The position numbers and the translations under genes were made by a program. The notes beneath the pieces were generated by a model that saw only the letters and a list, made by a program, of their open reading frames with translations, did not search any database and was not told the origin of the DNA. Positions 8,501 through 63,196 of a stretch of 64,000 nucleotides of DNA are shown in pieces (positions within the stretch are counted from its first letter, which is position 1; each line of letters begins with the position of its first letter). The DNA comes from Chrysoporthe austroafricana (Eukaryota > Ascomycota > Sordariomycetes > Diaporthales > Cryphonectriaceae). The stretch is taken from the NCBI GenBank assembly GCA_001051155.2, contig JYIP02000004.1, forward strand, positions 931,576 through 995,575. Direction: 5' to 3'.

Positions 8501-9713
8501 AGCCGCGACGGGTCGCACGGTGTCACCAGCTGCTGACGACCGCGGCCAGCCGGCCGGTTCGTTCGAAGGTCTCGGCCCGAGTCTGACTCGGGGCTTGCTG
8601 TACAGATATGACGAGTTGCTGTAGTAGTCGTGTCGCGAGGACTGCGTTGACATGCGCCGTGGGAGGTCGTGGTCGAAGGACTTGGCTGGCGAGGCCGGTC
8701 GTGGTAAGCCACTAAAAGAAGGAGGTTCGGCGGTGTCGGCGAAGGTCGAGCCCTTGGGCGAGGTCGCGAGGCTCGGGTCGAGTGTCACAGGTGGGCCCGT
8801 GATCGGCGACCGCGGTCGCGCCGGGCTGTCTTCAATCTCGCCTTGCTGATCCTGCTCTTCGACCACAGATTGCCGCTTGGCCTCGCGCTGTTCCTCCTCC
8901 TCCCCCTCCTCAGCTATCTCCACCAGCCTCCGCCGCCGCAGGGAGCTCTGAGAGGACGACGTAGACGCGGAGGCCGTGTGTAGCGAGCAGGCGTTGGACA
9001 GCTTGACCTCGCTGAGGTCCCTGCCGTCGGCGATGTCGATGGTCGTCTCGCAGGGGCCGAAGCGGTCGCAGACGGCATTGAAATGAACGGTGCTCCGTGC
9101 TGTGTGAAAATAGCAATTACGGTTAGCCGGGTACGAACGGTGAGGCGATGATAATCAGGGGGGGGGGGCAGTCAGCAAGGCCGCCCGCCGCAGCGCAGCA
9201 CAGCACAGCACAGCGCAGCGCGGCCGGACGGCGGCTCTCCTCCTGCTCGTTCGTGTGGGCGACCACCAACCTTGGATCAGCCGAGAGCAGCCCTCGGGCA
9301 TGTATTTGAGGAGGACGTTCCTCCTCCTGTACCTCAGGAACCCGAAGAGCGGCGACGTCTCCTCGTACTGCTCGATGTGGGAGCGCATCTCCACCACGCC
9401 GCCGCTCCCCTTGGCTAGGATCTCGACCTCATCGCGGCTGGCATACCGGAGCAGGAACCTGTGAGGGCGGGCAGCGTCAGATTAGCGACTGATCTGTGCG
9501 TGCGACGCACGATCGACCGAGATTGGCAATCAGAAGGGGAGGGGGCGCGCGCCATGAACAGGACCCGGGGGGGGGGGTTTAGAGGGAAGGGGGGGCGCAA
9601 TCCCGCCCGCCTCGGCCGTAGCTTTTTCAACAGACGTACCATCCTCCCGCCTCGGCCACCGCAGCCTCGTGGGCCTCCTTGACCCTGGCGTCGTCCAGGC
9701 CATTCAGCGACAT
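5543..9713 (-). CDS. ADF/cofilin-homology domain protein with a long disordered region, 3 exons
   Basis: Probable actin-cytoskeleton adaptor. Exons 9713-9640, 9458-9271 and 9099-5543 sum to 3819 nt, exactly 1272 aa plus stop. The start MSLNGLDDARVKEAHEA, the region around YEETSPLFGFLRYRRRNV, and VHFNAVCDRFGP fit an N-terminal actin-depolymerizing-factor homology fold (about residues 1-145). It is followed by an acidic EEGEEEEQ patch and about 950 residues of Ser/Pro/Glu-rich disorder. A conserved-looking C-terminal segment (about 1150-1272; WKRRTMSL ... PPYTPEIEFQELPYSVCLDLKSG) looks folded and may be a second domain. Both introns are in the ADF part. Family assignment is from memory of filamentous-fungal homologues; the function of the C-terminal part is unknown. 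Confidence 0.82.
9165..9225. repeat. G-run and GCACA/GCGCA short repeats inside intron 2 of the ADF gene
   Basis: A run of G followed by CAGCACAG/CAGCGCAG repeats lies within intron 2 (9100-9270) of the ADF-domain gene. It is simple low-complexity sequence with no coding role. Confidence 0.6.
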
Positions 9714-13197: not shown

Positions 13198-15071
13198 TTA
13201 AGTCTCCTTGGCCGGCGCCTGCGCTGGAGGGTCCGGCTCGGTAGCGGGCTTGTCCGGCGCGTTTTCTATCTCGCCGTCAATCTCCAGGGGCTCCTCCTCC
13301 AGAGATCCCTCGAGAGCCGTAGGCGTGAAAGAAGAATCACCGCTCTCTTTGTCGGGCCATATAGGGTCGTGTCCCTTCCCGCTGTTGCTCGCCGAGACAC
13401 CAATCGCGGCCCCGCCCTCCTCGATCTGCTTCTTCACCTCACCTACGATCTTCTCCACCTCGCTGATCTTGCCCGTCGTCGATGCCGGGTCGACCTCCAC
13501 GCCGATGTCTTTCTTGTTCTGGCTCTCGACCAGGGCCTCCTTGTCGAAGCGGACAATCATGCAGGAAAGATTGTCGGTGCTGAAGCGGGCGAGCGCGTGA
13601 TCTACCAGCAGCTTGGAGGCCGAGCCGGGGTCCTGGACGCCGCGGACAAGATCGACAGCTTCCTGATCGGAGCAGACATCCCACAGCTGCGGGTCCCGCC
13701 AGTCAGCACCGCCAGAAAAAGATGGGGAAGGGCACCAGTACTTACGCCATCGCATGCAATGATGATGAACTCGTCCATATCCGGCTGGATGACGGTCTCG
13801 GTGGTGTACGGATGACCAGTGACGAGGTCCTTCATGTAAGAGTCGCCGAGCGCCCGGGTGACTGCCAGCACACCGTTGACACGATTGTTGAGTATCAGCC
13901 CGCCGGCGTTCGTGATGCGCTTCCCCTCGTTCTCGTCGCTGCCCTTGTGGTCATAGGACAGACGCAGGGCCTTGCCAGAGCGGCACAAGACGATCCGAGC
14001 ATCGCCGACGTTGGCCGTGTACAGCACCCGCTGTCGCGACGCGGTGCCCTTCAGCTTGGCACGCTCGAACTCGGTGGTCTGCTTGAGCTCGGTGTTCGCC
14101 TCGGCGCCGTCCGACGCCTTCTCAGGCACCTTTTCCGTGGCCTTGGCCAGCGCAGGCGCGATGGATTGGGATCCGGTCTGGGAGACATTGCTGGGGACGC
14201 GGTCCTCCCAGCGCAGCACCGCGATGGCCGCGGTGCAGCCGCTGTTCTTAAGAGGTAGCTTCTCGAGCTGCGTGTCGACAGTAGTAAACGTCTGGTCCAG
14301 GAGCTCCGGTATGGCCGCGTTCGGGTTCTTCCTAATGATGTCCTCAAGGATGATGTGCAGCTTCTTGCCGCACCAGTCTGCCGCGAAGGTCCCGGCATGG
14401 CCATCGAAGATAGCGAAATAGCCATTGTCCGTCTCCAGCACGTCCTGGGCGGCGGGGCCGCTGCCGTCGCCCGAGGGTTTCGACGACTTCACGCCGCCTG
14501 CCTCGGAGGGCAGCGCCGGGGCGGGGGTGTGTAGGAAGTTGTACAGGAAGGCGTGGGTGTCCTCCATCGTCCGCCGGCACTTCTTGTTCCTATCCTCCCA
14601 GACACCGACGCGAAAGGTAGACTTCGGACCGGGGAGGGACTCGCCGGCGGCGTTGTTGTGCTGGCCCTGGGGTACCGCGAGAGACGGATCCTGCTTGCCC
14701 AGCTTCTGGAGGGGCGTCTGCTGCGCGGCGGCGCCCAGGTCGCTGTTGCTCCTACCCGCGACCTGGGAAAAGTTGAGGGTGTTCTTAGCACTCGCGATCA
14801 GGCTGCTGGCCTTGCTGCTGACGCCACTACTCCGCCTCTTGGCCGCGGCAGCGCTGGTGCTGGGGGGGCTGCCATTGCCGCTGCGCTTCTCACCACTCGC
14901 AACCTGGTCCGTAGTCTTGATCGGCTTAGGCGGGGAGCCGGAGGGCGAGCTGGAGGGGTTGGAGTCGGTAGATTCATCGGGCGAGGGGGACTTGCTATTT
15001 GACTTGGCAGTCGACTCGGGGGGAGAGTTGCTCTCTGCCTTCTGCGCAGAGCCGGATGAGCCGCCGAACAT
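13198..15071 (-). CDS. Protein phosphatase 2C (PPM family, Ptc1-like), 2 exons
   Basis: Mn/Mg-dependent Ser/Thr phosphatase. Exon 1 (15071-13746) and exon 2 (13686-13198) are separated by a 59-nt GT-AG intron that splits ACDG|LWDV, giving 604 aa. About 190 Ser-rich disordered residues precede the catalytic domain. PP2C motifs appear in order: [19 protein letters not shown] (metal-binding Asp), [44 protein letters not shown] and [12 protein letters not shown]. Between motifs 3 and 4 sits a 60-residue insertion. An acidic tail of about 90 residues follows the domain. The frame is open further upstream to 15494, but the first ATG in it is at 15071. Ptc1-type enzymes usually damp stress MAP-kinase signalling; assignment to that subtype is inference. 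Confidence 0.88.
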
Positions 15072-16725
15072 CTTACTGAACAGCAGACCTCCTTGGGCGG
15101 AGAGACTGCGACGCTTGGATCCTGCCAGGTTGTCTTGGGGGGGGAGAGGGGAACTAAGGGAGGTTGGGAGGTTCGCGGAGCCGGGCACCTTGGGGGAGGG
15201 GAGGGGCCAGGCAGATGACGTTGTGGCTAACGTCGAGCTGGGGACGGTCGTGCGCGCTGGCGTGAATAGTTTCGCGGGGTTGAGACTCGATCCAACCGCG
15301 ACGGGCAGGGCGGGGTTCCGTAAGCGAGATATCAAATCTCGAGTCAGCAATGGGCGCCTGGGGGGGTTGAGGTCGGAGGGGGATGTAGTCGATCGATGAT
15401 GAAAGGCTGTCGTGGGTTGGTGGATGTGGTAAGAGAGCGAGTATGGCCAGTGCTGCTTGTTGTCGGTGGGAAGGTCTGAGGGTCGAGGTCCCAAAGGCTC
15501 CCAAAGGCTCCCAACGAGTCCCCGCGGCTGCGGTTGCGACGGAGCGGAGCGAATCCGCCGTAGGTGCTAGTAAGCCCTGCTAGCCCGGATCGGAATGATA
15601 AGTGCGGGCTCGCAGATGAGAGCGGAAGAGCGCATGGTATTAAAGGCAGCAAGCAGGCGTGCACAGTGCTCTGGGCGCGTGCGTGTACTGACTGGCTCCT
15701 GTCGCGGGCGTCAGGCTCCCTTGCCGCGTGCGAGCCAGCCAGAGTCAGGCAGGCGTGTTTCTCTTGTCGCTCGTTTGCCCCCCCCCCCCCAGAGATAGTT
15801 TGTGTTGTTTGTGTGCTTGCCTACCTGTTGGTTTGGTGGTCTGGCAGGGCCGTTGTTTGGGGCACGGCGTTCTAACTGGAGGCTAGCGGCTGGTAGGGGC
15901 AGGTTGGGCAGCGGTACGTCATTGATAGGCACAGGTGCAGGTTGCAGGCCCAGGTGCAGGCCCAGGCCTAGGCGTGCCAGGCCCCGGCGCAGGTGCAAGG
16001 CTTAACTAACTAACTGCCCAGGCCCTTCTTCAGGTCTCACGTCCCAGAAGCGTAGGCGACGTGGGGCCCCGCGAGAAGAATGATGTAATGCCTCGCAAGC
16101 AAACGTCGCGACGCGGAGCTACCCAGGGACGATGACAGCATCAGACAGTCAGACAGTCAGAGCGAGCAGGAGGGGCCTGAGGTGCTGTGCAGGCAGATTG
16201 AGAATCCATCAATGATCCCGTCACCCTGGTCCTTTGTGAGTGTTCACCTTCGCGAAACCCTCCAAGCTGCAGCAGCCGCGGACAGGAACAACGCGGCGCC
16301 ACGCAGCGCGGCGCAGCGTCTCGACCTTGGCTTGGCGTCTTCAGCACCGGGCGCGCACAGGGTACTGAATACGGAGGAGCTATGGAGCCCCTCCTCACAC
16401 GCGGCAGAGGAGGTGGCGAAGCCGGACAAGTCATTGTTCCTCCCCAGGACCAAGGCTGCTTTGCGAACTAGAGAGGGCTGGTGGTTGCTCAATACGATGT
16501 CCACTCCCAAGTTGAACTTGCCCGAGGCCTACGCTCCAAGAACTTTGCAGATCTGTCAGCTACAAGCTGTCAGTTGCTGCTGATGACTTGCCATACCAAC
16601 AACACCCCATATGTGCATGTGCATGTGTGTTAAAGACGACCGGAACTCCACAACGTTTCAGAGACACCGCCCGGAACCTGGCTGCAATACCCAAATCTCC
16701 ACGCGCCGAGACGATCCAACCGCTG
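15072..16725. other. Intergenic region between PP2C and VPS2
   Basis: 1.65 kb, both flanking genes on the minus strand. It holds the PP2C leader, including an open but ATG-less frame to 15494, CAGG-type short repeats near 15930-15990, and the VPS2 3' flank. No gene is supported. Confidence 0.5.
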
Positions 16726-17648
16726 TCATCTCCGCAGGCTGTCCAGCCGGGCCTGGAGGTCATCGTCACCGGGGTCGAGCCCACCGCCTCCGACCGCTTG
16801 GGCGACCCGACCCTCGGCCACGGCGTTCGTCTGTAGGCCGGAAGGCGTCTCTCCGAGCTAAGCAGGGCCGGCCGCGTCAGCAGTATACTCCACAAGTGGT
16901 TCTTCGCAGTGCCGCTTACCGACTGGCTCAGATCGACACCGATCTCCTCGAGAACCTGCTCCACGACCTCGTCCCCCTCCTCCTCCACACCGACGTCCAT
17001 GGCGTCGTCGATCGCATCGTCCATCATCTCCTGCCGCTGGTCCATGATGTCGTTCTCCCTTTCAAACTCCATGGCTATCCTCTGTAGTTGTGGGAGGTTC
17101 ATGCTCTTGTTCATGCTGCCGAGGGCCATGGTAGCGCCCTTCATGGCCTGCATCATCTGCTCGTTCGTCCGGTAGGTCTGAAGAGCACGGTCAGTAGGAT
17201 AGTCCGCTGTCCAGGGGATCTTGCCCGTAGCGTACCTGCAGACGCAGGGAGATCTTCTGCAGCTGGCTCCGCATGCCGTAGAACTTCTCGATATACCTGA
17301 AAGCCATCATCAGCCTGGGTTCGGGGTCAGGGTCGTGGGTGCCGACCGGCAGCCGTACCTCCTCGTCCGCACGAGATCCTTCGCCTGGATCTTGGCCGCG
17401 CCCATCTGGTTCTTCTGTGCGCTCTGCTTGATCTGTGTGACCAGCGTCTTCTCCTGCTTCTCCAGCTTCACCCGGACCTGGTCGAGCTCGCGGATCGCCT
17501 TGTCGAGCATTCGCTGGTTCTTGCGCAGACGCTCCGCGGGCGTCATGCGCTTTCCGAAAGCCCACTCCAGGATCTGCCAGCCACATGCGATGGTCAGAGC
17601 TTGTCAGTCTCCAAGCCTCGGGGGAGGTAGTTCGCTGCTCACGTTCAT
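16726..17648 (-). CDS. VPS2: ESCRT-III subunit Vps2/CHMP2, 5 exons
   Basis: Core ESCRT-III component that polymerises on endosomes during multivesicular-body sorting. Exons 17648-17643, 17573-17359, 17296-17236, 17177-16920 and 16830-16726 give 645 nt, 214 aa, matching the usual length of about 220. The first coding exon is only 6 nt (Met-Asn). Visible are the basic N-terminal region (EWAFGKRMTPAERLRKNQ), the long alpha-helical coiled coil with LVTQIKQSAQKNQ, and NEQMMQAMKGATMALGSMN. The acidic autoinhibitory stretch DAIDDAMDVGVEEEGDE and the C-terminal MIT-interacting motif DDDLQARLDSLRR recruit Vps4 in known orthologues. A reading that runs past 16920 without splicing loses the motif; the last exon was found by the VAQAVGGGG...LDSLRR match. 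Confidence 0.93.
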
Positions 17649-18337
17649 GGTCTCTGTGCCGGAGCAGTCTCCCTGATAAGATCGATTGATATCGCGCTCG
17701 GGCTCGTCACAGCGAGTCTCCTGGAGGTGGGTGCAGGCCGGCCGGTAGTGTCTCAACCTCGCAGGCGTCTATAGGAGGGACGAACAGTGCTGCTTCGAAA
17801 ATTGCTGCCTGGATCTCTGGTGGCGTTGATACGTAAAAGCGAGTTCTGGGAGTGCGCAAGTGTCATTTGACTTCAGCCTGTTGAATCAAAAGCGTGTTCC
17901 GACTTGGCACGGCCAGGCCAAGCCCCTGCGCTGCAGCGAAATGCGCGGCCAGGGCCTCTGCCACGCCCTGGCAGGGGCTGGCGCCAACAGCGCCAGCCGG
18001 GCAGGCAAGCGGACAAGCAGGCAAAGCCAGTGCAGGACCCCATCAGATTAGGGGGTTAGGTAAGCGAGCCGCCGATAGAGAGAGAGAGTCTGGGGATCGG
18101 GCCACCGCGGCGGGCCTGAAGGTGACTGGGGGCGAATGAATGGCTGCTGGAAATTTGGGCGTGCTTGGAGCACTTACCAGGGCATGCATCGCGCGCGTCC
18201 TGCATGATTTTGCGGAACCGGCCATATTCGGATCGAAAAATAGACGGTCACCGGTTTTCAACGGCCATCCTTCCTCGCCCTCCCTCCTTCTTCTCACCAC
18301 ACCCACACCCACGCCCCTCCTCACCTCGTCCCACCAG
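17649..18337. other. Divergent promoter region between VPS2 and FZO1
   Basis: About 0.7 kb shared upstream region of two divergent genes. It contains a short GA repeat near 18078-18090 but no ORF of note. Confidence 0.5.
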
Positions 18338-18361
18338 ATGGACGCGCACGACCCGAAATGA
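18338..18361 (+). promoter_or_regulatory. Seven-codon upstream ORF whose stop overlaps the FZO1 start
   Basis: An ATG at 18338 opens a 7-codon frame (MDAHDPK) ending in TGA at 18359-18361. The main ATG of the mitofusin is 18358-18360, so stop and start overlap as ATGA. Such an overlap can couple termination to reinitiation. If the sequence CCACCAG just before it were a splice acceptor, the uORF would still be in the mRNA. A regulatory role is inference. Confidence 0.5.
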
Positions 18362-21185
18362 GTCAAGACTATTTCAGCGGCAAGGGCAAGTCGCCGGCGC
18401 GGCGGGACGGCGACGAGGCGTCCTCGTCCTCATCCTCATCCTCACATCCCGATGACGTCGCGAACCACCGCCGCCACCCGCCCGGCCGCGGCGACCTGCT
18501 GCCGGCCTTCGCGACCGTCGGCTCCGGCTCGACGTCCAAGTATGGCGCGCAGCTCCAGGAGATCATCGAGCGGGACTCTGGCTACGGTGGGTCTGTCGCC
18601 GGCGGGCCCGTCGACAACGTGCTGATGCCCGGCACATCAGCGTGGGAGAATGCGACGCACGCCGACACGCCACCGCTCTCGAACCACCCCGACCGCCGGC
18701 TCCAGACGAGCGCCGTGCACCAGCTGTGGTACAACCAGCAGCGCGGGGTGCTCAACCGGTCCATCAACAAGGTCATTGACCTCCTCACCGAGCTGCAGGA
18801 TGAGAACGCGAAATGGCCCGTCAACTACCCCTCCGTCCAGCGGGCTGAGGTCGACACCGCTACCTCTTCTCCCACGAGACCTGACTTCCGCTCGACCTTC
18901 TCCCACCTCGACGACTTTGGTGCCTCCTTACACAGGTCCCCTCCGCCACCGATCAGGCGCGCGATGACGTCCCTGGAGGAGCACGCCAGTGCCGAGTCGA
19001 GCAAGGCGGGTGAGAAGAGGCCCGGGACGGAGCCGCGGCTTGTCACGCCCCAGATCGCCCAGGAGTTTTCGATATTGAAGCTGGATCTCAAGCTGGGCGC
19101 CCTGAACCAGACACAGCTGGTCCACTCGCTGGAGAAAAGTTCAGTCGCGTCCCTGCTCGACGGCAAGATCAGCTCCAGCATCGCACACCTCTTGAAGCTA
19201 CGGGAGCGGATCGAGGACACAGCAAGCAAGGTCCTGATCACCGGAGACCTGAACGCTGGAAAGTCTACGTTCTGCAATGCCCTGCTGAGGAGGAAGGTCC
19301 TGCCTGAAGACCAGCAGCCGTGCACGAGCATCTTCTGCGAGGTCCTGGACTACAAGGAGAATAGCAACATAGAGGAGGTCCACGCGGTCCACAAGGATGC
19401 TATCTACGATCGGAACGACGAGACAACCTACGATGTCTACCGCCTGGATCAGCTCGAGCAGATCGTCATCGACAACGATGCCTACATGATGTGCAAGGTC
19501 TACGTCAAGGAGGTTCGATCTCTTGACGAGTCCTTGCTCAACAACGGTGTGGTGGATATAGCACTGATCGACGCGCCTGGTCTCAACTCAGACACGACCA
19601 AGACGACCGCCGTCTTCGCCAGGCAGGAGGAGATCGATGTCGTCGTCTTCGTGGTCTCGGCCGCCAATCATTTCACACAGTCGGCGAAGGAGTTCTTGTG
19701 GGCTGCTGCGGCAGAAAAGGCCTATCTCTTCATTGTTGTCAACGGTTTCGATATGATTAGAGATCAACGGCGTTGTCAGAAGATGATCCTCGACCAAGTT
19801 GCTGGCATAAGTCCGAGGACGCACAAGGAGTCAGCCGAGCTGGTCCACTTCGTGTCGAGCAACGCAATACCAATGATGCCCTCGCCGCCAGGCGGACCGG
19901 GCGGCGACGGAAGCGGCAGCTCGAATGGAGGCGGCGGCGGCGACGACCCCAGCAATCCGAAGGGTAAAGGCAAAGACAAGCAGAAAGTGCGAGACTTCCA
20001 GAACCTGGAGCAGTCCTTGCGGAGATTTGTGCTGGAGAAGCGAGCACGGTCAAAACTTGCTCCGGCCAAGCATTACCTGCTGAACATTCTTGCCGACGTC
20101 AACTCCTTGGCGAATGTGAATGCTGAGGTCGCCCAGTCGGAGGTGGACCGGGTCGGCAAGGAGTTGCGGGAGATCGAGCCTCAGCTGGAGGCCAGCAAGA
20201 AGGCTCAGAGCATGATGTTGGACGAGGTCAACCAGACTATCGACGAGACATGCGACGACGTCTATCAGCATACCCGCGGCAGCCTGAACAAGGCTATTGC
20301 GCATGCTGACGAGAACATTGACGTCCCGTACCCTGGATTGTTTTCAGCGTTCGACTATGCCGAAGAGCTCAAGGAAGCAATGTTGCAAGGAATTCAGGCC
20401 TGTGTTACCGACTGCGAGGAATATGCACGTGGAAAGGCTGTCGGTGGTGTCGACGCGATCAAGCAGCTTGGTATTCTGCACCTGGGTAACGAGTATTCCG
20501 GACTCAACTTCCACCCAGACGTCATGTTCCGGCGTAGACGTGACGCGCTGGCCAAGCAGATTGATATCCCCACCGAGCTGCTTGATTTTGTTGACTGGTC
20601 GACGCTCATGCAACGACAAGAAAAGGTGGCCGGGACGGGCATGGCGCTGACTGTGGCCACGACTGTTGGCATGCAGGTCGTCGGTGGGTACAGCTGGATG
20701 GACCATGCTTTCAGCGCTGCTCGCATCATTGGAAATGATAATCTCCGCCGGATGATTATTCCTGGCTTGATTCTTGCAGGTAAGCACTTACACCTATCCT
20801 CTCACTTCGTGGGCTTGTACTGACACTGTCCGCAGCCGCCGCAGCCGCAGCCTACGTTCTCAACCAGATTCCCCAGTCCCTCCCGCACCGCCTCTCCAAC
20901 AAGATTTCCACGCAGCTCGCCTCTATGGAGTACGTGCACACCAACGCGCAGCGGATTTCGGGCTCCGTCCGCAAGGTCCTGCACACGCCCAAGGACCACG
21001 TCGTCTTCAACCTGAACCGCTCGGTCGAGCAGCTGGGCCAGCGCCGCGAGGAGACGCTCAAGGTCAAGAAGGAGAGCCACGAGGCGCTGCGGTACTTCAC
21101 GAACCTGGTGCGCAACAGCGCAGACCAGAGGACGCAGGTCGAGGGCGTGGACCTGGAGACTGTTCCCCCGGCGGCGACAATGTAG
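18358..21185 (+). CDS. FZO1: Mitofusin Fzo1, outer-membrane fusion GTPase, 2 exons
   Basis: Dynamin-family GTPase that tethers and fuses mitochondrial outer membranes. Exons 18358-20779 and 20836-21185 give 2772 nt, 923 aa. A Ser-rich disordered N-terminus is followed by a helical region (HQLWYNQQRGVLNRSINKV) and the GTPase domain: P-loop GDLNAGKST at about residue 296, G2 threonine in QQPCTSIFCEV, G3 IDAPGLNSD, and FIVVNGFD in the G4 position. A Gly-rich low-complexity insert lies at about residues 503-535. Two hydrophobic segments near the C-terminus (ALTVATTVGMQVV and MIIPGLILAAAAAAYVL) match the paired membrane anchors, with a coiled coil (HR2-like) after them. The single 56-nt intron falls inside the second anchor. 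A tiny uORF overlaps the start codon. Confidence 0.94.
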
Positions 21186-22037: not shown

Positions 22038-22693
22038 TCACAGCGCAGGCCTCGCCTGGACGCCGCCCTCCTTCCCGAGGGCCTCCCCGAGCCGGTCCGC
22101 GGTGCTGCCGTCCGGGCCGCCGGCGGTGAGCAGGTCCTGGCCCTGCTCGCGCTGCCGCATCTCCTGCTCCATGGCGATCATCTGCTGCTCCTCGGCCCAG
22201 CACAGCGCGAAGGGGACGCCGATGAGCAGGGCGGAGACGGAGATGGACCACATGGAGCGGCCAGCGAAGAAGACGACGCCGGTGAGGACGCGCCGCGTGG
22301 CCTGGTACTTGCCGTAGAACCAGGAGCGGGTGGTGGGCGGGATGATGTCGCGGAGGGCCGCGAGGCGGTCCGCGAGGGTCTCGGCGGTCGGGTCGAAGTC
22401 GGAGTCGTTCGAGATTTCGGAATCTGTGGGGAGGGGGTTGGATCTTTAGCACGCGTGTCTCGACCAGATACCCTGGCGCTGGCGCTGTGGTGGTGAGGGT
22501 AAGGGTGGTGAGGCGACCTGTGCAGGGCGCATCTCGAAATTTTGCCCATTGCGTCACTGGGGGCGCGCGGCGAGGGCAGGAAGAAACCGCGAGAAGACCA
22601 CCTACCAGTATCGGTGTAGTCGCCGTCGTCCTCCTCAGGGCCAGGCTGGCGCTTCTGGAACTCCTCATCCTCGACTTCGACAAGCTGGACCAT
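22038..22693 (-). CDS. TOM22: Mitochondrial import receptor subunit Tom22, 2 exons
   Basis: Central receptor and organiser of the TOM translocase in the outer membrane. Exons 22693-22606 and 22423-22038 join across a 182-nt intron to 474 nt, 157 aa, the normal Tom22 size. The N-terminal cytosolic part is acidic (MVQLVEVEDEEF, EEDDGDYTDTD, SEISNDSDFDPTAETLADRL). Then follow RDIIPPTTRSW and a C-terminal-anchor-type membrane segment (VFFAGRSMWSISVSALLIGVPFALCWAEEQQ). A short intermembrane-space tail ends QARPAL. It neighbours FZO1 tail to tail, so two outer-membrane genes sit together, probably by chance. Confidence 0.93.
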
Positions 22694-24653: not shown

Positions 24654-25352
24654 TTAAACGGCACCGGCCTTCTTGCCCTTGCCCTGATGATGGGGCTCAC
24701 GAGCCTCGATCTCCTCGACATCACGAACAGCACCAGCCTTCTTGCCCTTGCCCTGGTGGTGAGGCTCGCGGGTCTCAAGATCCTCCACATCGCGGACGGC
24801 ACCAGCCTTCTTGCCCTTGCCCTGATGATGGGGCTCACGAGCCTCGATCTCCTCGACATCACGAACAGCACCAGCCTTCTTGCCCTTGCCCTGGTGGTGA
24901 GGCTCGCGGGTCTCAAGATCCTCCACATCGCGGACGGCACCAGCCTTCTTGCCCTTACCCTGGTGGTGGGGCTCGCGGGTCTCAAGATCCTCCACGTCAC
25001 GGACAGCGCCGGCCTTCTTGCCCTTGCCCTGGTGGTGGGGCTCACGAGCCTCAATCTCTTCGACGTCGCGGACGGCACCAGCCTTCTTGCCCTTGCCCTG
25101 GTGGTGGGGCTCACGAGCCTCGATCTCCTCGGCGTCGCGGACGGCACCAGCCTTCTTGCCCTTGCCTTGGTGGTGTGGCTCCCGGACGTCCACGCCGACG
25201 GGGACGGCCAGGGCGGGGCCCGCCAGGGCCGCCATCAGGGCGACGCTGCGGCGGGACAGAGCCACGGTACCGGGAGCGCCAAGCTCAAAACCGGTGGCGG
25301 TCGAGGCCGCGAGGCCCGACACGAGCAAGCTGAGGACTGAGGGAGCGTGCAT
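24654..25352 (-). CDS. Secreted repeat protein, candidate Kex2-processed RiPP precursor
   Basis: Single-exon 232-aa protein. Residues 1-21 form a plausible secretion signal (MHAPSVLSLLVSGLAASTATG). A leader of about 35 aa with an RR site and a hydrophobic ALMAALAGPALAVPVGV stretch follows. From residue 57 there are seven complete 23-residue repeats and a final 15-residue partial one. Each begins REPHHQGKGKKAGAVRD and ends VEEIEA or VEDLET (the first has AEEIEA). The KK in GKGKK recurs every 23 residues and could be cut by a Kex2-type protease to free near-identical peptides starting AGAV. This is the layout of fungal KEP proteins and dikaritin precursors. No Tyr, Phe or Trp is present in any repeat, unlike ustiloxin-type cores. 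A UstYa-family gene lies 2.1 kb away. Product identity is unknown. Confidence 0.75.
   Translation of the reverse strand: MHAPSVLSLLVSGLAASTATGFELGAPGTVALSRRSVALMAALAGPALAVPVGVDVREPHHQGKGKKAGAVRDAEEIEAREPHHQGKGKKAGAVRDVEEIEAREPHHQGKGKKAGAVRDVEDLETREPHHQGKGKKAGAVRDVEDLETREPHHQGKGKKAGAVRDVEEIEAREPHHQGKGKKAGAVRDVEDLETREPHHQGKGKKAGAVRDVEEIEAREPHHQGKGKKAGAV
24657..25184 (-). repeat. 69-bp tandem coding repeat, 7.65 copies
   Basis: In-frame tandem array encoding the 23-residue units. Units differ mainly at synonymous sites and fall in two classes, EEIEA and EDLET (the first unit has AEEIEA). On top of this, a 138-bp two-unit block at 24668-24805 recurs apparently without change at 24806-24943, showing recent expansion. 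Confidence 0.9.
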
Positions 25353-27492
25353 GTTGTCTGGTCTTTTTTTGAAAGTATAAAAGAATGCACTAGCTTGGAA
25401 TAGGTAATTGCTGGCCGGCCAGCTGAAGTGAATGAGTGAATTAGGTGGAGACGAAGGGAAAAGTGCTCAGCTGATTAGGGACGGAGGGTGGCGTGAGCAC
25501 GTTTGAGGGATGAGAGGGTTTTCACCTTCTTATACGATATTTGCTCTCTCCTCGCACAATATAGTTCGAGACGGCTCCCCCCTGACGATGTCGACATGCC
25601 CGGGGGCGCACTGCAAATAGCCACGGCTAGTCACTGCCATGCGAGACGGAGGTGAGGGCGAATGCCATGGGAGCGTGTTGGGGGTCGGGCACAAGTTGGG
25701 ACGAGAGACAGTGGTCAAGACTGATCGACGAGAGATCCTCGTCTGAGAGTCCGTCTCATGGCCCTCGTGTGGATCTGTTCACCGCGTGCGGTCTTTGGAC
25801 CAAGGTTCACGGCGAGCGCATGCTCGTGACAGGACGAAGCTGAGACTGAGCCTAAGACGGGCGGGACGAGACGATCCACCTGTGAGACTAGAGTTTGGGA
25901 CAGTCTCGTAAAGCCCAGGACCGCCAGGACCAGCAGCGCTGCCGGGATAGGCTGTAAGCAGATCCCTGGAGACCAAGTCCGAAGGGAGAAGAGGCTCATC
26001 CAGACGTTCGGCACCGGCGATCTACCCCATATGCCATGGCCGGCAGTTCTGGGAGGCCTTCCGCCCCTGATCTCACAGTTCCGATCAGTAACGTGGATCC
26101 GTGCCCGGGGAGACCGAGGGTCGTAACCTTAAAACTTTAAGTTGGTTGTCAAGATCCCTCGAGACCAGACGGTCTTGATAGTTGGTACGGCTGGTACGGC
26201 TGGTACGGCTCGTACGATTAGCACGGCTGGCACGGCTGAGGCTGTCCTTTGATGTCTTCACAGCGCCAAGTCGAGGAGCGACCAAATGCCTCCCGCAAAT
26301 CAACCGAAGACGTTCATCGATCATTGCCAGATCGACTATGATTTACGATGGCAGCACATCGCGCAGATCAGGATTCGTCGAGCGCCCATGAGCCTGCAAG
26401 GCTGGGCGCACATGGGCGGACGTCGCTGGGCTGGGATGAGGCTGAGAGGCGCTGAAACTGGATTTGGCTTGGCGCAGTGTCGCTTTTGAGACAAGTCGCT
26501 AGCGACGAGGCCGCCTCAGTCCAATGCTGCGGCGACACCTGGGGCCCCTTGGATGGTGTCTCATTGGTTTTGGAGCTGTTGAAAACTGGGGCCATGCGAG
26601 CCCTGTGAGCATCTACCGCGTAGCAGGGGCGCTATTCCTGGTTCGCCAAGATGAAACACCATGGGCTCTCATCCCCATCGCTTAAGTTCGTGATATACTC
26701 CTCGCTCTCGACTTAACCGAGACGTTGCAATGGGGGCGGCAATGCCGCACGCAACATACTCAACCACAAGGCCGAGTGCTCTTGAGGGAGCAGCGGCATG
26801 CATCTACATTAGTAGAATATGACAAGCCATCATCATGAAGGAAGATCCAGCGACCCAGCGTGGACTCCTGCGAAGAACCGCCGACGCCAAGCGGCCGTGT
26901 TCAAGAGGCTGCCTCCTGGATTCCACCTCGCCCCGTCGCGTTTCTTCAAACACACCCTGGCCTTGCGCTGTGTCTCAAGTCGCTTTTGCTTCCATCGTCA
27001 GACGTCTCGTACCTAGGAGCGAGTCACCGCGCGTTTGGGCAGACGCCGGGCTCTCCTCTGCTCTTCATCCTGCCATCCTCTCCCTCTCCCTTCCTCCCTC
27101 TCCCCTATATGCGTTACGTAAAAGCTGTTTCTTGGCAACCCGTGGATCATCGCTCCTCTCAGACTCTGGAACTCGTGCGCCGCGATCTTCTGGCACTGGG
27201 AAGATCCCTCAGATCGCAAAAGCTTGGCTCAGTTGATCTGACCTGAGACGATTCTACGAGGCAGCGCGGGCCGCGAAACACGAACCCCGGCGCGAAGTGC
27301 TCGAGCGCTGCTCTGTCTTCTGTCTACCCTCTGGTGCTCGCATCTCTCCTGGGTCGAGGGCATCGCTGCCACGCCTTTCGTTCTCTCTAGCTTGCTTTTT
27401 ATTCTGCTCATTGCACCTGGCGTGTATTTTCATCTGTACAGTCTGTGACTTCAACTACACACCCCCCCCCGTCTTCTAATACCACCGCCATC
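25353..27492. other. Divergent intergenic region of the candidate RiPP locus
   Basis: 2.1 kb between the divergent precursor and UstYa genes, so it probably contains both promoters. It holds a short GGTACGGCT-type minisatellite at 26181-26240. No further gene is supported. Confidence 0.5.
26181..26240. repeat. Short 9-10 bp minisatellite
   Basis: About six imperfect copies of a (G)GTACGGCT / GCACGGCTG unit in the intergenic DNA. Apparent ORFs across it read as Arg-Thr-Ser repeats and are not genes. Confidence 0.7.
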
Positions 27493-28514
27493 ATGCCCAG
27501 TAAAGTCTACCGTGCCGTCGCCGCCGACGAGGAGCAGAGCCGGAGCAGCTCAGACACCATCTACGAGAAGGAGACGCTGCGGGTGAGGTTTCAAGACGAC
27601 GAGTTCGAGCGGGATTTCAGGACAAGGACGCTGGACTTCCTCTCCAGGAACTGGCCCTGGATCGCACACACAGTGCTGCTGTCGATATCGCTGATCCTCT
27701 TCACAATTTCCTTCTGCCAACGGACGGCGAGGGTATCGGATCTGACAGTCACAGAGCAATATTCGTCATACTGTATGCCGGAACCCTCTCTATTTCTCTC
27801 TTGGATAGTCCATGGCTGACAATCGCAGCACCGGTGGCACCCATCGTGAAGTATGAGACTGTACGATATAACCTCACGCCTCTGGTGGAGGGGCCCTTTG
27901 TCGGCTTCGGCCCCAAGGTGGATGAGGCATGGGACTCCATTGCCAACGACAGTATGTTGCTCCCATGGCCAGAAAAAAAAAGAAGAAAAAAAATACTGAC
28001 TAGGTGGCATAGTGGGCGATCAGATGATCTCCGAACAGGAGCTGGACAGGCTCGGCCTCCCGAGGAACTCGCTGAAGGTCAAGGACCCGGCCACAGGCAA
28101 GGTTGGCTACCGCGCTGCGGTCGAGGTCTTCCACCAGCTGCACTGCCTCAACCTCCTGCGGCAGTACATCTACAAGGACTACTACATCAACATCTACAGC
28201 GACATCCAGGAGGAGGAGGAGGGCCTGAAGGGCCACGTCGGTAAGTCGAACCCCCCCCCCCATTCCCGTCAGGCGCGAGGCCCCATCCCGCTAACCGTGG
28301 ACGCGCCGCCCCAGACCACTGCCTCGAGGCGCTCCGGATCAACCTCATGTGCACGGCGGACATTGGCATCTTCACGTTCCGGGAATACCCGGAGTATGGG
28401 TTCGAGAAGGACGACTTCTGGCCCGACTTCAGCACGCTGCACACGTGCAGGAACTTCGACGCGATCCACCAGTGGGCCATCGACCACACCGTCTCGTGGA
28501 CGCACGACGTGTGA
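27493..28514 (+). CDS. UstYa-family (DUF3328) oxidase/cyclase, 4 exons
   Basis: UstYa-type proteins install oxidative cyclisations in fungal RiPPs (ustiloxin, phomopsin, asperipin, victorin). Exons 27493-27772, 27829-27951, 28013-28240 and 28315-28514 sum to 831 nt, 276 aa, typical for the family. A cytoplasmic N-terminus of about 55 residues is followed by one TM segment (IAHTVLLSISLILFTISFC). The lumenal part contains VKYETVRYN, FGPKVDEAWDSI and GDQMISEQELDRLGLP. It then carries both defining HxxHC motifs, HQLHC in exon 3 and HVDHC across the exon 3/4 junction. It ends HTCRNFDAIHQWAIDHTV. The start at 27493 is chosen because it begins MPSKVYRAV; an in-frame ATG at 27445 is less likely. It is intact and divergently placed beside the repeat precursor, so joint function is inferred. 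Confidence 0.92.
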
Positions 28515-30638: not shown

Positions 30639-31796
30639 CTACCGGGCTGGTGGTGGCTCCGGCTGCGTGTCTTCGGCCGCCTCCTGTATCCCCTCCAGCA
30701 CTTGTTGCAGCGCCGTGGCGTATTGTCGTAGAAGCTTCGCTCCCTTGGGCGAACGCTGAAAGGTCTGCCGTGATTCGGGCTTTTCGGCATGTCTCTTCAT
30801 TGTGGCAATTTGACCCTCGACATGTGCCACAGCCTTATCTATCTTCCTAAGTAGTTCTTCGAGATTTTTTTGTTGCCGGGTGGCATCCATCAGCGGCTGG
30901 TGGCTCTTGTCGTTACCTAGCTCGATATTCTGGCGAATAAAGCGGTCCATTACTCGAAAGTGTTTCTTCAGGTCCACAATGAGCTTTAATAGGTCCTTTA
31001 TTTGATAGTGGAATATGGAGCCGCTCTTTGCGTTGAATTGCAAGAAGTATAGCCACTTGTCGTAAACTTCGTTGTAAGCTGTTATTGAGCTATTCTTATT
31101 CCCTAATATGGATTGAAGGTAAGAAGTGGGGACCTCATCGAGCGCTCCCACCAAAAATCTACATTTCATTTCGTATAGCTTGATAAAATTTGGTGCTCCA
31201 GCGACAGCGTCCTTCAGTTTCAGAGCTATTCGGGGAGCAAGTTCTTTGAACTGATCCTGAGCATGCAGAAAAGATTCGTAATCGGGCAGCTTTGAAATTT
31301 CGGCTACATGTTCTGTGTTCTCTATGCTGGAAAGCGACCGTAAGAGAGAACCTGACTGGTTCGATACTTGCGTCGGGGATTGATATATCAGTTCCAGAGA
31401 GCTTTCCAACTTGGAATCTATGCTCGGGTTAAGAGAATTAGTGAAAGTAGGAAGCTGGCTGGAAGTAGAGGGCTTGCTGGAAGTAGAGGGCTTGCTGGAA
31501 GTAGAGGGCTGGCTGGAAGTAGAGGGCTTGCTGGAAGTAGAGGGCTTGCTGGAAGTAGGAAGCTGGCTAGAAGTAGGAGGCTGGCTGGAAGTAGGAAGCT
31601 GGCTGGAAGTAGGAAGCTGGCTGGAAGTAAAAAGCTGGCTGAAAGTAAGTCTGACGAGAGGAAAGCAGGCCAGAACGACGGCGAAGAGCAACAGGCCAGA
31701 CGAGATCATCCTCAAGGGATTCCTCCGAACCTGTGATCTGCGCCGTCGCTGCCGGCTTGCAGAGGTTTTGTCTATACCGTGAACGTCGCGGTCCAT
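30639..31796 (-). CDS. Hypothetical single-TM protein with hexapeptide repeat
   Basis: Unrecognised 385-aa single-exon protein. A basic N-terminus (RQRRRRSQVRRNPLR) precedes one membrane segment at about residues 30-52 (MISSGLLLFAVVLACFPLV), consistent with a type II or signal-anchor topology. Residues 57-116 are ten tandem six-residue units of the form TSSQLP/TSSKPS, likely an extended, O-glycosylated stalk. The remaining 270 residues are predicted helical with coiled-coil character (DQFKELAPRIALKLKDAV, KNLEELLRKIDKAVAHVEGQIATMKRH). It ends in Pro-rich EPPPAR. The open frame extends upstream to 31865 but without an ATG, so 31796 is used. It lies 2.1 kb from the UstYa gene; no functional link is evident. 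Confidence 0.65.
   Translation of the reverse strand: MDRDVHGIDKTSASRQRRRRSQVRRNPLRMISSGLLLFAVVLACFPLVRLTFSQLFTSSQLPTSSQLPTSSQPPTSSQLPTSSKPSTSSKPSTSSQPSTSSKPSTSSKPSTSSQLPTFTNSLNPSIDSKLESSLELIYQSPTQVSNQSGSLLRSLSSIENTEHVAEISKLPDYESFLHAQDQFKELAPRIALKLKDAVAGAPNFIKLYEMKCRFLVGALDEVPTSYLQSILGNKNSSITAYNEVYDKWLYFLQFNAKSGSIFHYQIKDLLKLIVDLKKHFRVMDRFIRQNIELGNDKSHQPLMDATRQQKNLEELLRKIDKAVAHVEGQIATMKRHAEKPESRQTFQRSPKGAKLLRQYATALQQVLEGIQEAAEDTQPEPPPAR
31449..31628 (-). repeat. 18-bp coding minisatellite, 10 copies
   Basis: Encodes the TSSQLP/TSSKPS/TSSQPS units of the preceding protein. The variant units are interleaved, which suggests slippage or unequal exchange; copy number is likely variable among strains. 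Confidence 0.85.
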
Positions 31797-33873
31797 TCTT
31801 GCAGATTGCCCAGATTCCGGCCCGACAAGCTCGTCTCGGGTTCTGATGAGGTGAAGGATGTGCACGATGGGACGGAGGACGCTGGAGAGAAGAGAGGAAG
31901 GAAGAAAGCTAAGGTGGTGGACGCGTACTTGCGCGTGGGTACAGTATAGGCGAGATAGTAGTAGTCTGGCTTGTGCTGTCGTGATGTTGAGCCTGTGACT
32001 AGACTAACGAGAGCCGGGTCCGGCGCATCCGCCCATAGTTATAACAGGATCGCAATGAAGAAGAGGAGACGAGAAGGCCTGGGCGAATAGCACACTAGGA
32101 GCGCTTGGAACAGCGAGAACAAGGAGAGGCTGTGCAGACGGGACAGACTGGGACTGTGGAAGCGGGCGAGATTCCCAATATAGGATCTGGATGAGAGCCA
32201 CGCCTCCAACGACAAAGCAGACGACCCGCGACTGGCACTGGCACTGGCACTGGCACTGGCACTGACACGTACGGCTGTACCATGTAAGGGCCGGCAGAGG
32301 AGGGCATACTACCGCCGGCGACCCGCCCATGGCTATAACAGGATCGCAACAAAGAAGACGAGACAAGAAGGCGAGGACAAGGAGGCGGCAAAATTTCCAA
32401 TATAGACTCTGGATGAAGCGACGCCTCCACCAGCAAAGCACTGACAGGTTCCTGGAGGAGGGTATACTACCGCCGGCGACCTGCACGTGTGACTGGCAGA
32501 GCCCAGAGGCGGTGACGATGGGCCGTGCCTTAGCTCGCTGGCCCAGGACGGATCCGAGTGCCAGACCCTCAGGCCACTTTCAGGTGCTGGGTAGCCCAGC
32601 TTCCGGCGCGGCGTCGAACTTATTCCCACGCCAATTTCCCGCCGCCCATCCAAGCCATCCAAGCCATGCCACCCACCCGAGGCCCTCTTCCTTCGACCGG
32701 ACCGGCGGCGAAGCGGCCCCCGGGGTCTGGGGTGCTGGGACGAATCAGGTCGCTGGCGCGCTCCACCCGTCGTGCAATCGCCGTGGTGGGTTGCACGACT
32801 TGACAGCAGACCGGCGCGCAGGTGGTGCATTCTGGCGTCGATCGTACGGTTGCGCACACCGGCGGGGCAGGGGGACGGGCAGCAGGGGGACCTGTGCGCT
32901 GGCAGCTGGCTGGTTGTTTATTGTGTTATTGAAGCGACTCAACAAAGCAGAGAGAGAGCGCCGCATGGCAGACCACATTGGGTAGTAATTATACATAGTA
33001 TGTACCATGTAGGTGCTAAGTAGGTGACGTCCCGTCGGGGGTCTCACCCTGCTCCGCCCTGCCCCTTTCCTAGCGTGCATAGTGCGTCTGTAGTGAGGTG
33101 TGTGGGTGTGTGGGTTGGTGACAGCCTCTGCGGCCTCGTCCCTGGAGGTTTCTGTTGGGCGGGCTGGAGCTCTCACCTGCGCCGCTCGAGCCCTGTGAAG
33201 CCCTGGGCTGCCACCGACATGGTACCTACCATGGTACTGTAGCGCCTACTGTGCCTGATGTCACTGTTACATGCTATGGTGCTCAGCAGGGCGCTGGGTG
33301 CGGGCTACGACCGCAGCAGTACGGAGCTTGGGCCACGGCGTCTACCGCCTATCTTATCGATCTCTGATCCAAGAAGGGACGATAAAGGAAAAAAAAAAAG
33401 GCAAAAAAAAAAAAGAGAAAGCCCGACAAGAAAAATTTCGCGAAATTGCGCATCATACCACGCTTACTCCTTGCGCCCTCCCCCCTCCCCCCAGCAGGCC
33501 CCCCTTCCACTCGCTTCCCCGCGATATACCCTCGATGTCCCGCTCGGGTCGGGAACTGCCCATCCTCCGTCACGCCAGTCCGGTTGAATCGAGTCGACTT
33601 GTTGCGTGTGGCAACGTGGGCCCCGGTGGATCCGTTCTGTGGTAGGGCGGTGGGGCGTGCGTCGCTCGACATCTTTTCTAGAAGACGGCATCCGCTTCTC
33701 GAGAGCCCACATCGCACCTTCGATTCTCGACTTCTCCCCAGCACGCCTCCCTCCCCGACCTCCCCGCGACCTCATCACCACCGCCGCGCCCGCCCTCGGT
33801 CGACGACAACAACAACGGGCCAGGGCCAGCCTCCAGCCCACCTCACCTTCATCCTGCCCTCCCGCCGCCCACC
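31797..33873. other. Intergenic region with a diverged duplication
   Basis: 2 kb upstream of both the TM-repeat gene and ERG3. It carries a diverged direct duplication and an ACTGGC hexamer array. Pyrimidine-rich sequence near 33,700-33,860 precedes the ERG3 start. No gene is supported. Confidence 0.5.
32025..32480. repeat. Imperfect direct duplication and (ACTGGC)n array
   Basis: Segments around 32028-32225 and 32325-32455 share blocks in the same order: CGCCCAT..TATAACAGGATCGCAA, CCAATATAG..CTCTGGATGA-type, and ACGCCTCCA. A GGCATACTACCGCCGGCGACC block is also present twice (about 32300 and 32460). Five perfect and one imperfect ACTGGC hexamers sit between at 32231-32266. The ORFs here are spurious. 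Confidence 0.7.
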
Positions 33874-42416: not shown

Positions 42417-43409
42417 CTATGACTTTGTCGGCACCGTTTTGATCTGGAATATCGCCTGCGGCAGCTCTGTCGTCTCGGCCTGTACCGTCGCGTTGATACC
42501 CATGGCGGCTAACGCGCCTCGTACAATACCGCAGGGGAACCACAGGAACTGTTCTGATGTCAGCAATTTATTTTTCTTCTTAAGACAGAAAGGAGCACGG
42601 AATGACATACCGGCTCCGCCCGGGGCACGGCATTCACGCCAGGCCCCGTGCTCATCCTCGAGAACGGCCGGAACAGGTTGTCCGTCAGGACGTAGACTCC
42701 CTACAGAATATACCGTCAGCAACAGTGCCCTGTTTTCCTTCTTCTCCTTTGCTCTTCTTTCTTCTTCTTCTTCCTTTGATCGCCTAGGGTTGGGATGAGG
42801 GCCGCGTGTACGTACCCTGTGGTTCGTCTTGAGGTTGTCCACCTGCTTCCGGAACACCAGCGTCCACAGGTCCTTGCACACAAACTTGATCACATCGAGG
42901 GTGTCGTTGAAGCGCGGCCTGTCGCGGGAGAACCTGAGGGGCGCGGAAACCCAAGGACCACCGGTCAGCACACACACATATACACGGCCCCGCCCGTTCC
43001 CGCGAAAACACACGCAGGTGGCGTGAGGGTGGGGGGGAACAACGACATACCTCTCCACCAGCCCCTGCCCGACTCGGTACCCTAGCATCTCGAGCCGGTA
43101 AAATACGGCGTCCCGCTCCTCCTCCTCGTCCATGACCCGCCTCGCCCCCGGCGCGGCGGCGGGGACCCCGGCGCCCGCCATCGTGCCCGTACCGGATACG
43201 GAGTCCGACGACGACGACGCGGCGGCGGCGGCGCTGGCGGGGTGGGAGGGCACATCGGAGCCCGGCGCGGGCGCGGCCTCCAGCTCGTTGGTCACGCGGT
43301 AGGCCATAGGCACGAGCTCGATCAGCAGGAGGTCGATGCACGAGGAGCTGAGGAAGGTGGCCGTCGGGTCGCCGGCGTTGTAGGGCGGCATCACGGGCTC
43401 GAAGGACAT
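42417..43409 (-). CDS. TRS33: TRAPP complex subunit Trs33/TRAPPC6, 4 exons
   Basis: Bet3-family subunit of the TRAPP tethering complexes acting as Rab/Ypt1 exchange factor at the Golgi. Exons 43409-43051, 42933-42816, 42700-42611 and 42548-42417 sum to 699 nt, 232 aa. The N-terminal helix region (CIDLLLIELVPMAYRVTNE) is followed by a low-complexity Ala/Ser/Pro insert of about 45 residues that is absent from compact orthologues. Then come YRLEMLGYRVGQGLVERFSRDRPRF, DVIKFVCKDLWTLVFRKQVDNLKTNHRGVYVL and FLWFPCGIVRGALAAMGI. This block is characteristic of the family. The gene is intact. Confidence 0.9.
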   Translation of the reverse strand: MSFEPVMPPYNAGDPTATFLSSSCIDLLLIELVPMAYRVTNELEAAPAPGSDVPSHPASAAAAASSSSDSVSGTGTMAGAGVPAAAPGARRVMDEEEERDAVFYRLEMLGYRVGQGLVERYVVVPPHPHATCVCFRGNGRGRVYVCVLTGGPWVSAPLRFSRDRPRFNDTLDVIKFVCKDLWTLVFRKQVDNLKTNHRVRTRGPHPNPRRSKEEEEERRAKEKKENRALLLTVYSVGSLRPDGQPVPAVLEDEHGAWRECRAPGGAGMSFRAPFCLKKKNKLLTSEQFLWFPCGIVRGALAAMGINATVQAETTELPQAIFQIKTVPTKS

Positions 43410-44154
43410 CTTGGAAACGGCGGCTGGGGAGGCGTGCCGGGCGCGGTGCGGTGCGAGAGAAGGGGAGAGGGGTATAAGAGTGAACCCGGTGTTTGGGACT
43501 GTGTTCTCGACGGGCTATTGTCTCTCCCAGGCGGTCGTGACCTTATTGGGGTTCCTGGAGGAGGGCAGTCGGGGCGCTTTTGATCTCGGGAGCTGGGCCG
43601 GGGAGGGGGGGCCTTCTGTGTCGTCCGGGGGTAGAGTCGAGAAGAAAGCGTCCTGGGGCTGTTCGGATGGGTGTTGGGAGCTATGGTTGCTGGGAGGGAG
43701 TGTGCCTCGCAATGTCCAGCAGCCGTCGTCTGCCAGCGTTCGCTGCTTTCGTCAGACCCCCCAGGAGCCCCTTGGCCTGGTCTTGACGCTTATCTTATCG
43801 AGGCGGGCCGAACTAGCATACTGACTCCCCGTCGCCCCCCCCCCCTCCTCCGGCTCTCCAAAATAAATTGAACCTTCTCTCGATAGCTTCGTTAACTCAT
43901 AGTGAAATTGAGCGTGTCTAGGGATTGACCGATTCAACGCAACATGCACCTCTAGATGTGTTGCTGGTAGTAGAATAGCCGTCTCGAAGAGTCTGTCTGT
44001 CTTCCGTTTCCGTGTAAGAGAGTGTGCATAACGCAAGGCGAGCCTCATCATATTCTTGGGAGCGTCCACTATAGCATATTCCACCTGAAGTTCCTGTGTC
44101 AAGGAATCTGTTTCATATATATTTATTGTTTTAGTAGTAGAACAGAAAATAATA
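43410..44154. other. Boundary between housekeeping block and accessory island
   Basis: 0.75 kb upstream of Trs33. Base composition shifts to AT-rich at about 43,870. No gene is supported. Confidence 0.5.
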
Positions 44155-63013: not shown

Positions 63014-63196
63014 GATGGCGAGTGGCGGTCGCTGGCAAGGAGGGCGAGGCCTAGGACGAGGTCGAGGTTCGCGGAGCACACCATGTGGGTATGCATGTGC
63101 ACGTGCTCGTGTTCGTGCCCAGAAACACGCGTCGCTGGCGATCCTCCGCCGATATAGAGATGGGAGGCGAACGGAGCTGGCGGTACCAGCAGTCAT

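What the first reader, a model, noticed from the sequence alone, without database searches (positions are those of the whole stretch)
24654..28514. Candidate minimal RiPP locus: repeat precursor next to a UstYa-family enzyme
A secreted protein of seven and two-thirds near-identical 23-residue repeats, each with a KK site, stands divergently 2.1 kb from an intact UstYa (DUF3328) protein with both HxxHC motifs. Known dikaritin and victorin loci combine exactly these two gene types. I see no tyrosinase, methyltransferase or second UstYa in the window, so this would be a very small locus. The flanking genes are housekeeping.
Basis: partly seen in the sequence, partly recalled or inferred. Interest (0 to 1): 0.88.

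Follow-up and report, generated by a model that had tools for sequence, protein, structure and literature searches.

The report
His-His repeat peptide precursor plus UstYa
A fungal gene carrying eight copies of a small secreted peptide sits beside the gene for an enzyme of the kind that chemically modifies such peptides; relatives suggest that the pair is old, belongs to a catalogued but unstudied type, and may be trimmed in the manner of a fungal mating pheromone.

Summary
A 232-aa secreted-type protein with seven and two-thirds 23-residue repeats (24654-25352, minus) lies 2,140 bp from a divergent, intact four-exon UstYa gene (27493-28514). Repeat cores differ only silently. The pairing looks genuine: in Gaeumannomyces tritici the homologues have adjacent locus tags (GGTG_01713, GGTG_01712) and GGTG_01712 best matches this UstYa gene here. 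Against it: in Fusarium austroafricanum the listed homologues are not adjacent (1 of 2 testable genomes). The type is probably already catalogued (di-histidine KEP type G-8; 45 of 49 with DUF3328); I found no functional study. KK cleavage and AGAV peptides are not supported. In 28 family precursors, 87 of 88 His-His pairs follow Arg-(X-Pro)n, n=0-2, as if a kexin cut and Ste13-type trimming released cationic HHxGK peptides from acidic spacers. The window's repeats have no Tyr, Trp, Phe, KR or RR, so this is not a classical dikaritin. What the oxidase does is unknown; modification of the His pair is my best guess.

The parts
24654..25352 (-). Repeat precursor gene, 232 aa, uninterrupted reading frame
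   Evidence: homologues; silent-only variation of the core
25290..25352 (-). Probable signal peptide, residues about 1-21 (end approximate; no signal-peptide predictor was available)
   Evidence: hydropathy; N-terminus conserved in the alignments
25185..25289 (-). Leader, residues 22-56, with a second conserved hydrophobic stretch
   Evidence: alignments; hydropathy
24657..25184 (-). Seven 23-residue repeats plus a 15-residue eighth: core R|EP-HHQGKGKKAGAV-R and acidic spacer D(V/A)E(E/D)(I/L)E(A/T)
25353..27492 (.). 2,140-bp divergent intergenic region; the two ORFs of it that I scanned (25715-26128 minus, 26823-27236 plus) have no Pfam match
27493..28514 (+). UstYa-family (PF11807, formerly DUF3328) gene, 4 exons, 279 aa; hydrophobic stretch about residues 55-74 (by eye); HQLHC at 178, HVDHC at 212

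Best explanation
A two-gene locus for a secreted multi-copy peptide of the KEP (KEX2-processed repeat protein) kind and its partner oxidase. Proposed working: the precursor enters the ER; a kexin-type protease cuts after the Arg on each side of the core (single Arg here, often KR or RR at the second site in relatives); a Ste13/DPP-IV-type aminopeptidase removes the X-Pro dipeptide, leaving cationic peptides that begin His-His-(Gln/Lys/Ala)-Gly-Lys; the acidic spacers are discarded. The membrane-anchored UstYa protein next door oxidises or cross-links the core in the same compartment, most likely at the His pair, the best conserved oxidisable side chains of the family. Shown here: both genes, selection on the core, homologues of both, tag adjacency in G. 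tritici, and the Arg-(X-Pro)n-His-His rule. Inferred: every protease step, the enzyme-substrate relation and the modified residue.
For: Both genes intact. Core under selection. Precursor homologues in 15 named genera. UstYa homologues 78% (Diaporthe vaccinii), 75% (Cytospora mali) and 56% (GGTG_01712) identical. GGTG_01712 and GGTG_01713 are adjacent tags. Reverse search of GGTG_01712: the window gene scores 102.8 and 95.9 bits in its two best exon matches, the best other locus 72.5; Sporothrix schenckii P0020: 110 and 99 against 62.4 bits. Of 88 HH pairs in 28 precursors, 67 follow R-X-P, 16 follow R directly, 4 follow R-X-P-X-P and 1 follows K; at 2,640 other positions of the same proteins a clean (X-P)n, n at least 1, back to a basic residue occurs 8 times. 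In the 21 of 28 precursors whose first unit fitted my pattern, the HH part is net basic and the spacer net acidic. The genome has one strong DPP-IV-type match, 364 bits, besides a marginal one of 23 bits, and one kexin P-domain match. Products apparently cut after single Arg were seen for other KEPs expressed in yeast (PMC9769878, passages).
Against: In Fusarium austroafricanum the listed precursor (F53441_715) and UstYa (F53441_13638) are not neighbours by tag. Adjacency could be checked in only two genomes. The cut sites in the window are single Arg, weak for a kexin. The core lacks the Tyr of the characterised UstYa-type cyclisations. Four of 28 family precursors have no HH at all, and the weakest members are marginal hits (P0009 and P0010, E about 1e-3). 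HH pairs in repeats are not independent observations. No expression or peptide data.
Confidence: 0.55

Rival explanations
1. A linear cationic peptide (signal or antimicrobial) made from the precursor by proteases alone; the UstYa neighbour acts on something else or only shares regulation.
For: No aromatic residue in the window's repeats. Le Marquer 2019 (PMC6339444, passages) calls the Ste13 signature generally dedicated to alpha-pheromones in Ascomycota and absent from precursors of toxic cyclic tetrapeptides and of epichloecyclins. The listed Fusarium austroafricanum genes are unlinked.
Against: Adjacent tags in Gaeumannomyces and DUF3328 near 45 of 49 members of the probable type.
Confidence: 0.25
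2. A classical dikaritin-like RiPP: cleavage at KK and a macrocyclised core that begins AGAV.
For: Signal-type N-terminus, repeats and an adjacent UstYa with two HxxHC motifs. AGAV is invariant among the window's eight copies.
Against: In relatives HHxGK and the two Arg sites are kept, the place of KK is not. No Tyr, Trp, Phe, KR or RR in the repeat region. The same genome holds UstYa-linked precursors with KR-flanked Tyr units (L018, L022), L022 with a tyrosinase match.
Confidence: 0.08
3. Chance neighbours: the genome has many UstYa genes and the precursor happens to lie near one.
For: About 29 UstYa loci by my grouping of 50 exon matches; the Fusarium pair is unlinked.
Against: The orthologous pair is adjacent by tag in a fungus with only 56% identical UstYa. 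With 5.25 KEPs per Ascomycota strain (Umemura 2020, passage) and about 0.3 Mb of UstYa surroundings in 48 Mb, my rough expectation of chance pairs is under 0.1 per genome; this genome has at least four repeat-precursor and UstYa pairs (window plus 3 of 20 other loci examined).
Confidence: 0.07

Closest known systems
KEP type G-8 (#15), di-histidine, Umemura 2020 (PMC7329392)
   Same: Secreted repeat precursor with HH and Pro in the repeat and a DUF3328 gene within 15 genes in 45 of 49 members. Of G-8's 18 genera, 4 (Pseudogymnoascus, Sporothrix, Colletotrichum, Pyricularia) are among the 15 named genera of my precursor hits; of the 20 genera of the other di-histidine type, G-3, none is.
   Different: No KR or RR in the window's repeats; no Diaporthales genus that I recognise in the G-8 list. 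The listed UstYa homologues touch genera of both types. The member table and the logo figure could not be seen, so identity with G-8 is inferred.
Dikaritins (ustiloxin, phomopsin, asperipin-2a) and victorin
   Same: Signal-type N-terminus, multi-copy cores, adjacent UstYa-family protein with double HxxHC.
   Different: No Tyr or other aromatic and no KR in the repeats, no tyrosinase or second UstYa in the window; an X-Pro spacer before the core.
Epichloecyclins (gigA cluster)
   Same: Small locus: a repeat precursor with one DUF3328 gene (four-gene cluster, PMC7317419 passages).
   Different: gigA lies with a kexin gene and its cores are cyclised through Tyr (PMC9233826 passages); here the only kexin P-domain match is on another contig and there is no Tyr.
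Ascomycete alpha-pheromone precursors
   Same: Repeats preceded by a basic cut site and X-Pro or X-Ala dipeptides for Ste13 (PMC6339444 passages).
   Different: Pheromone genes are, with three exceptions, not near DUF3328 genes (PMC7329392); the window's cores are His/Lys-rich without Trp or Cys.

Membership tests
KEP (KEX2-processed repeat protein) | N-terminal signal peptide | tested here: inconclusive
   Hydrophobic N-terminus by hydropathy; no signal-peptide predictor available
KEP (KEX2-processed repeat protein) | Near-identical tandem repeats | tested here: met
   Seven full copies and a 15-residue eighth
KEP (KEX2-processed repeat protein) | Dibasic KR/RR (to a lesser extent KK) sites between cores | tested here: inconclusive
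   0 KR and 0 RR in the window's repeats; KK present but its place is not conserved; 14 of 24 HH-bearing family members have KR or RR somewhere in the repeat region, 10 including this one do not
KEP type G-8 (Umemura 2020) | BlastP clustering with the other members of the type | not testable with these tools
   Table S2 and Fig. 5 are not held; only shared HH plus Pro and genus overlap
Dikaritin, class-defining-enzyme definition | DUF3328 enzyme with two HxxHC motifs (here beside a repeat precursor) | tested here: met
   definition as given in PMC12048977, passages
Dikaritin, classical five-gene definition | Tyr in the core (as in ustiloxin, phomopsin, asperipin-2a) | tested here: not met
   0 Tyr, 0 Trp, 0 Phe in the 173-residue repeat region
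Dikaritin, classical five-gene definition | Tyrosinase and multiple DUF3328 genes nearby | tested here: not met
   No tyrosinase match and no other UstYa locus in the window
Dikaritin, classical five-gene definition | Methyltransferase, transporter or peptidase nearby | tested here: inconclusive
   None among 40 chosen ORFs of the window; short exons may be missed
Ste13-processed (pheromone-type) precursor | X-Pro or X-Ala dipeptides directly after the basic cut site | tested here: met
   Arg-(X-Pro)n-HH, n=0-2, for 87 of 88 HH pairs of the family; n=1 in 8 of 8 window copies
Ste13-processed (pheromone-type) precursor | Actual removal of the dipeptide | not testable with these tools
   needs peptidomics

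The most novel reading that the evidence does not exclude
A conserved fungal peptide system that joins two arrangements described as separate: pheromone-type trimming (Arg, then X-Pro dipeptides removed by a Ste13-type enzyme) and a dedicated UstYa oxidase. It would give secreted peptides with a free N-terminal His-His that the oxidase modifies, or that bind a metal such as copper, in a chemistry that uses no aromatic side chain.
Probability: 0.3. Interest if true: 0.75.

Novelty: new member of a known kind. Interest (0 to 1): 0.5.

Why it matters
What UstYa-family enzymes do, and to which residues, is in my judgement still poorly known; no solved structure was found for this subfamily by profile or by fold. 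One precursor with one oxidase and a core free of aromatic residues is a clean system for asking whether His or aliphatic positions can be targets.

Tried and rejected
Rejected: KK cleavage and AGAV peptides. Rejected: a chance repeat. No second copy of the precursor in the genome: a 61-residue repeat query found three overlapping or neighbouring matches, all inside this gene, at E up to 10; a diverged copy could be missed.

Led nowhere: searches of papers for the repeat letters (24 papers, the 20 listed unrelated by title); UstYa with copper and oxidase (2 papers, not read); N-terminal histidine copper peptides (0 papers); a Fusarium sexual-development paper that mentions UstYa once (passages) and is about a Pumilio protein; PDB by profile (none at E up to 1) and by fold (best E 0.49, none at 0.001); scans of viral contigs and genome contigs for stray fungal contigs with either gene (no relatives).

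Limits: repeat precursors were sought at 20 of the 28 other UstYa loci. That scan also flagged a 13-residue repeat in L023 without a signal-like start, which I set aside, and the L027 frame has no signal-like start by my crude test. Of 188 UstYa homologues 120 are listed. Both precursor searches scored only about 8,000 candidates. The family is therefore a lower bound.
Full report
What is there. The minus-strand gene at 24654-25352 encodes 232 aa: a hydrophobic N-terminus, a leader with a second hydrophobic stretch, then seven 23-residue repeats and 15 residues of an eighth. The repeat cores are identical as protein, yet 10 of 15 codon columns vary silently and none by replacement, so the peptide sequence appears to be under selection. 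The plus-strand gene at 27493-28514 is an intact UstYa-family gene with four exons and both HxxHC motifs. I modelled its closest listed homologue (P0012, Diaporthe vaccinii, 78% identical), not the window protein itself: one long N-terminal helix and a mixed helix-and-strand domain, mean pLDDT 74.6, pTM 0.60. No solved structure resembles it (best Foldseek E 0.49; no PDB chain by profile).

Surroundings. I scanned 40 chosen ORFs of the window against Pfam. To the left: PP2C phosphatase (13605-15566), Snf7 (16563-17306), a dynamin-family GTPase (18244-20823) and Tom22 (22041-22445). To the right: a TRAPP component (42420-43514), a GMC-oxidoreductase C-terminus (46604-47449), two P450 stretches (48018-49379) in a stretch of lower GC, a YjeF/FDF protein (57170-59755) and a PIF1 helicase (61430-63721). 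No tyrosinase match and no other UstYa locus falls in the window. Short exons may be missed.

Relatives. The precursor search gave 10 proteins and a profile search 23, of which 17 were new: with the window's own, 28 proteins, from 15 named genera. The UstYa search gave 188 proteins at E up to 1e-20, 120 listed. The two sets share a locus-tag prefix in two genomes. In Gaeumannomyces tritici the precursor is GGTG_01713 and the UstYa GGTG_01712, neighbours by tag. In Fusarium austroafricanum they are F53441_715 and F53441_13638, not neighbours; that precursor is a weak hit (E 4.5e-5). GGTG_01712 searched against this genome scores 102.8 and 95.9 bits on the window gene, 72.5 on the best other locus; a Sporothrix schenckii homologue likewise prefers the window gene, 110 and 99 against 62.4 bits.

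Internal control. The genome has 50 UstYa exon matches, which I group into 29 loci. Around 20 of the 28 others (10 kb each), three have repeat frames with Tyr and KR: L018, L022 and L027, the last without a signal-like start by my crude test; one more repeat frame, in L023, has neither and was set aside. L022 also holds a tyrosinase match (C16:43776-44324), so a classical dikaritin-type locus exists in the same genome. The window's precursor has no Tyr and no KR.

Processing. The 28 precursors hold 88 His-His pairs; 24 proteins have at least one. The stretch back to the nearest Arg or Lys is empty in 17 (16 Arg, 1 Lys), one X-Pro in 67 and two X-Pro in 4: always a clean multiple of X-Pro, never an odd length. 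At 2,640 other positions of the same proteins a clean (X-Pro)n with n at least 1 occurs 8 times. Repeats are homologous, so these counts are not independent, but n=0 and n=2 each occur in more than one protein. The Lys case (P0146) is in a model that looks truncated or fused. Four precursors have no HH (P0010, P0133, P0142, P0145); P0010 and P0142 still show Arg followed by runs of X-Pro, five of them in P0142. The natural reading is a cut after Arg and stepwise removal of X-Pro by a Ste13-type enzyme, leaving N-terminal His-His. The downstream boundary is an Arg before an acidic spacer; 14 of 24 HH-bearing precursors contain KR or RR somewhere in the repeat region, 10 including this one do not. 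The genome has one strong and one marginal DPP-IV-type match and one kexin P-domain match. Products apparently cut after single Arg have been reported for other KEPs expressed in yeast (PMC9769878, passages).

What is known. Umemura 2020 (PMC7329392; sections 6 and 9 read, passages of others) lists KEP type G-8: di-histidine with Pro, 49 members, 18 genera, 45 with DUF3328 within 15 genes. Four of these genera are among my 15 named precursor genera, none of the 20 of the other di-histidine type, G-3; the UstYa homologues touch genera of both types. I infer, but could not check, that this precursor is G-8. The same paper reports Tyr in 65.6% of repeats of KEPs with DUF3328 nearby and HH in 5.7%, so the Tyr-free HH type is a minority. 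Le Marquer 2019 (PMC6339444; section 9 read and passages) calls the Ste13 signature generally dedicated to alpha-pheromones in Ascomycota and absent from precursors of toxic cyclic tetrapeptides and of epichloecyclins. I found no paper on the function of the HH type and none noting a Ste13-like spacer in it; the searches were made, over open-licence PMC papers, mostly seen as listings, with supplements and figures not readable.

Verdict. A real and probably old precursor-oxidase pair of a catalogued but, as far as I could find, unstudied type. New here: the reinterpretation of the product from relatives (His-His peptides, not AGAV), the X-Pro rule, the adjacency of orthologues in Gaeumannomyces, and the presence of the pair in this genome, whose nearest UstYa relatives are Diaporthales (Diaporthe, Cytospora). 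That the enzyme acts on this peptide, and how, remains an inference.

Noticed in passing
L022 (G000:C16:38000-47999), locus 2224-3138 minus: Repeat precursor with 14 KRHTYG units, a UstYa match and a tyrosinase match nearby: looks like a classical dikaritin-type locus in the same genome.
   Followed up: partly
L018 (G000:C16:254500-264499) 8222-8707 plus; L027 (G000:C16:770500-780499) 7460-8485 plus: Two further repeat frames beside UstYa matches: KRCSYN units with a signal-like start beside three UstYa matches, and Tyr/Gly-rich units with KR but no signal-like start by my test.
   Followed up: no
P0001, P0003, P0008, P0138, P0140, P0142, P0144 (proteins): Several precursor models break off or carry foreign residues at the HHxG codons, as if unspliced introns sat at the same point of the repeats; the window gene is uninterrupted there. 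Judged from protein sequences only.
   Followed up: no
   Followed up: partly
window 30642-32003 minus: 454-aa open frame without Pfam match, containing an 18-bp repeat array (31445-31647) that codes a Ser/Thr/Pro-rich stretch.
   Followed up: no
window 26183-26238: Nine-base repeat TGGTACGGC, about 6 copies, in the intergenic region between the two genes.
   Followed up: no
P0010 and P0133: Two family precursors keep the leader and Arg-Glu-Pro but have Lys-rich units without His-His, so the HH is not universal in the family.
   Followed up: no
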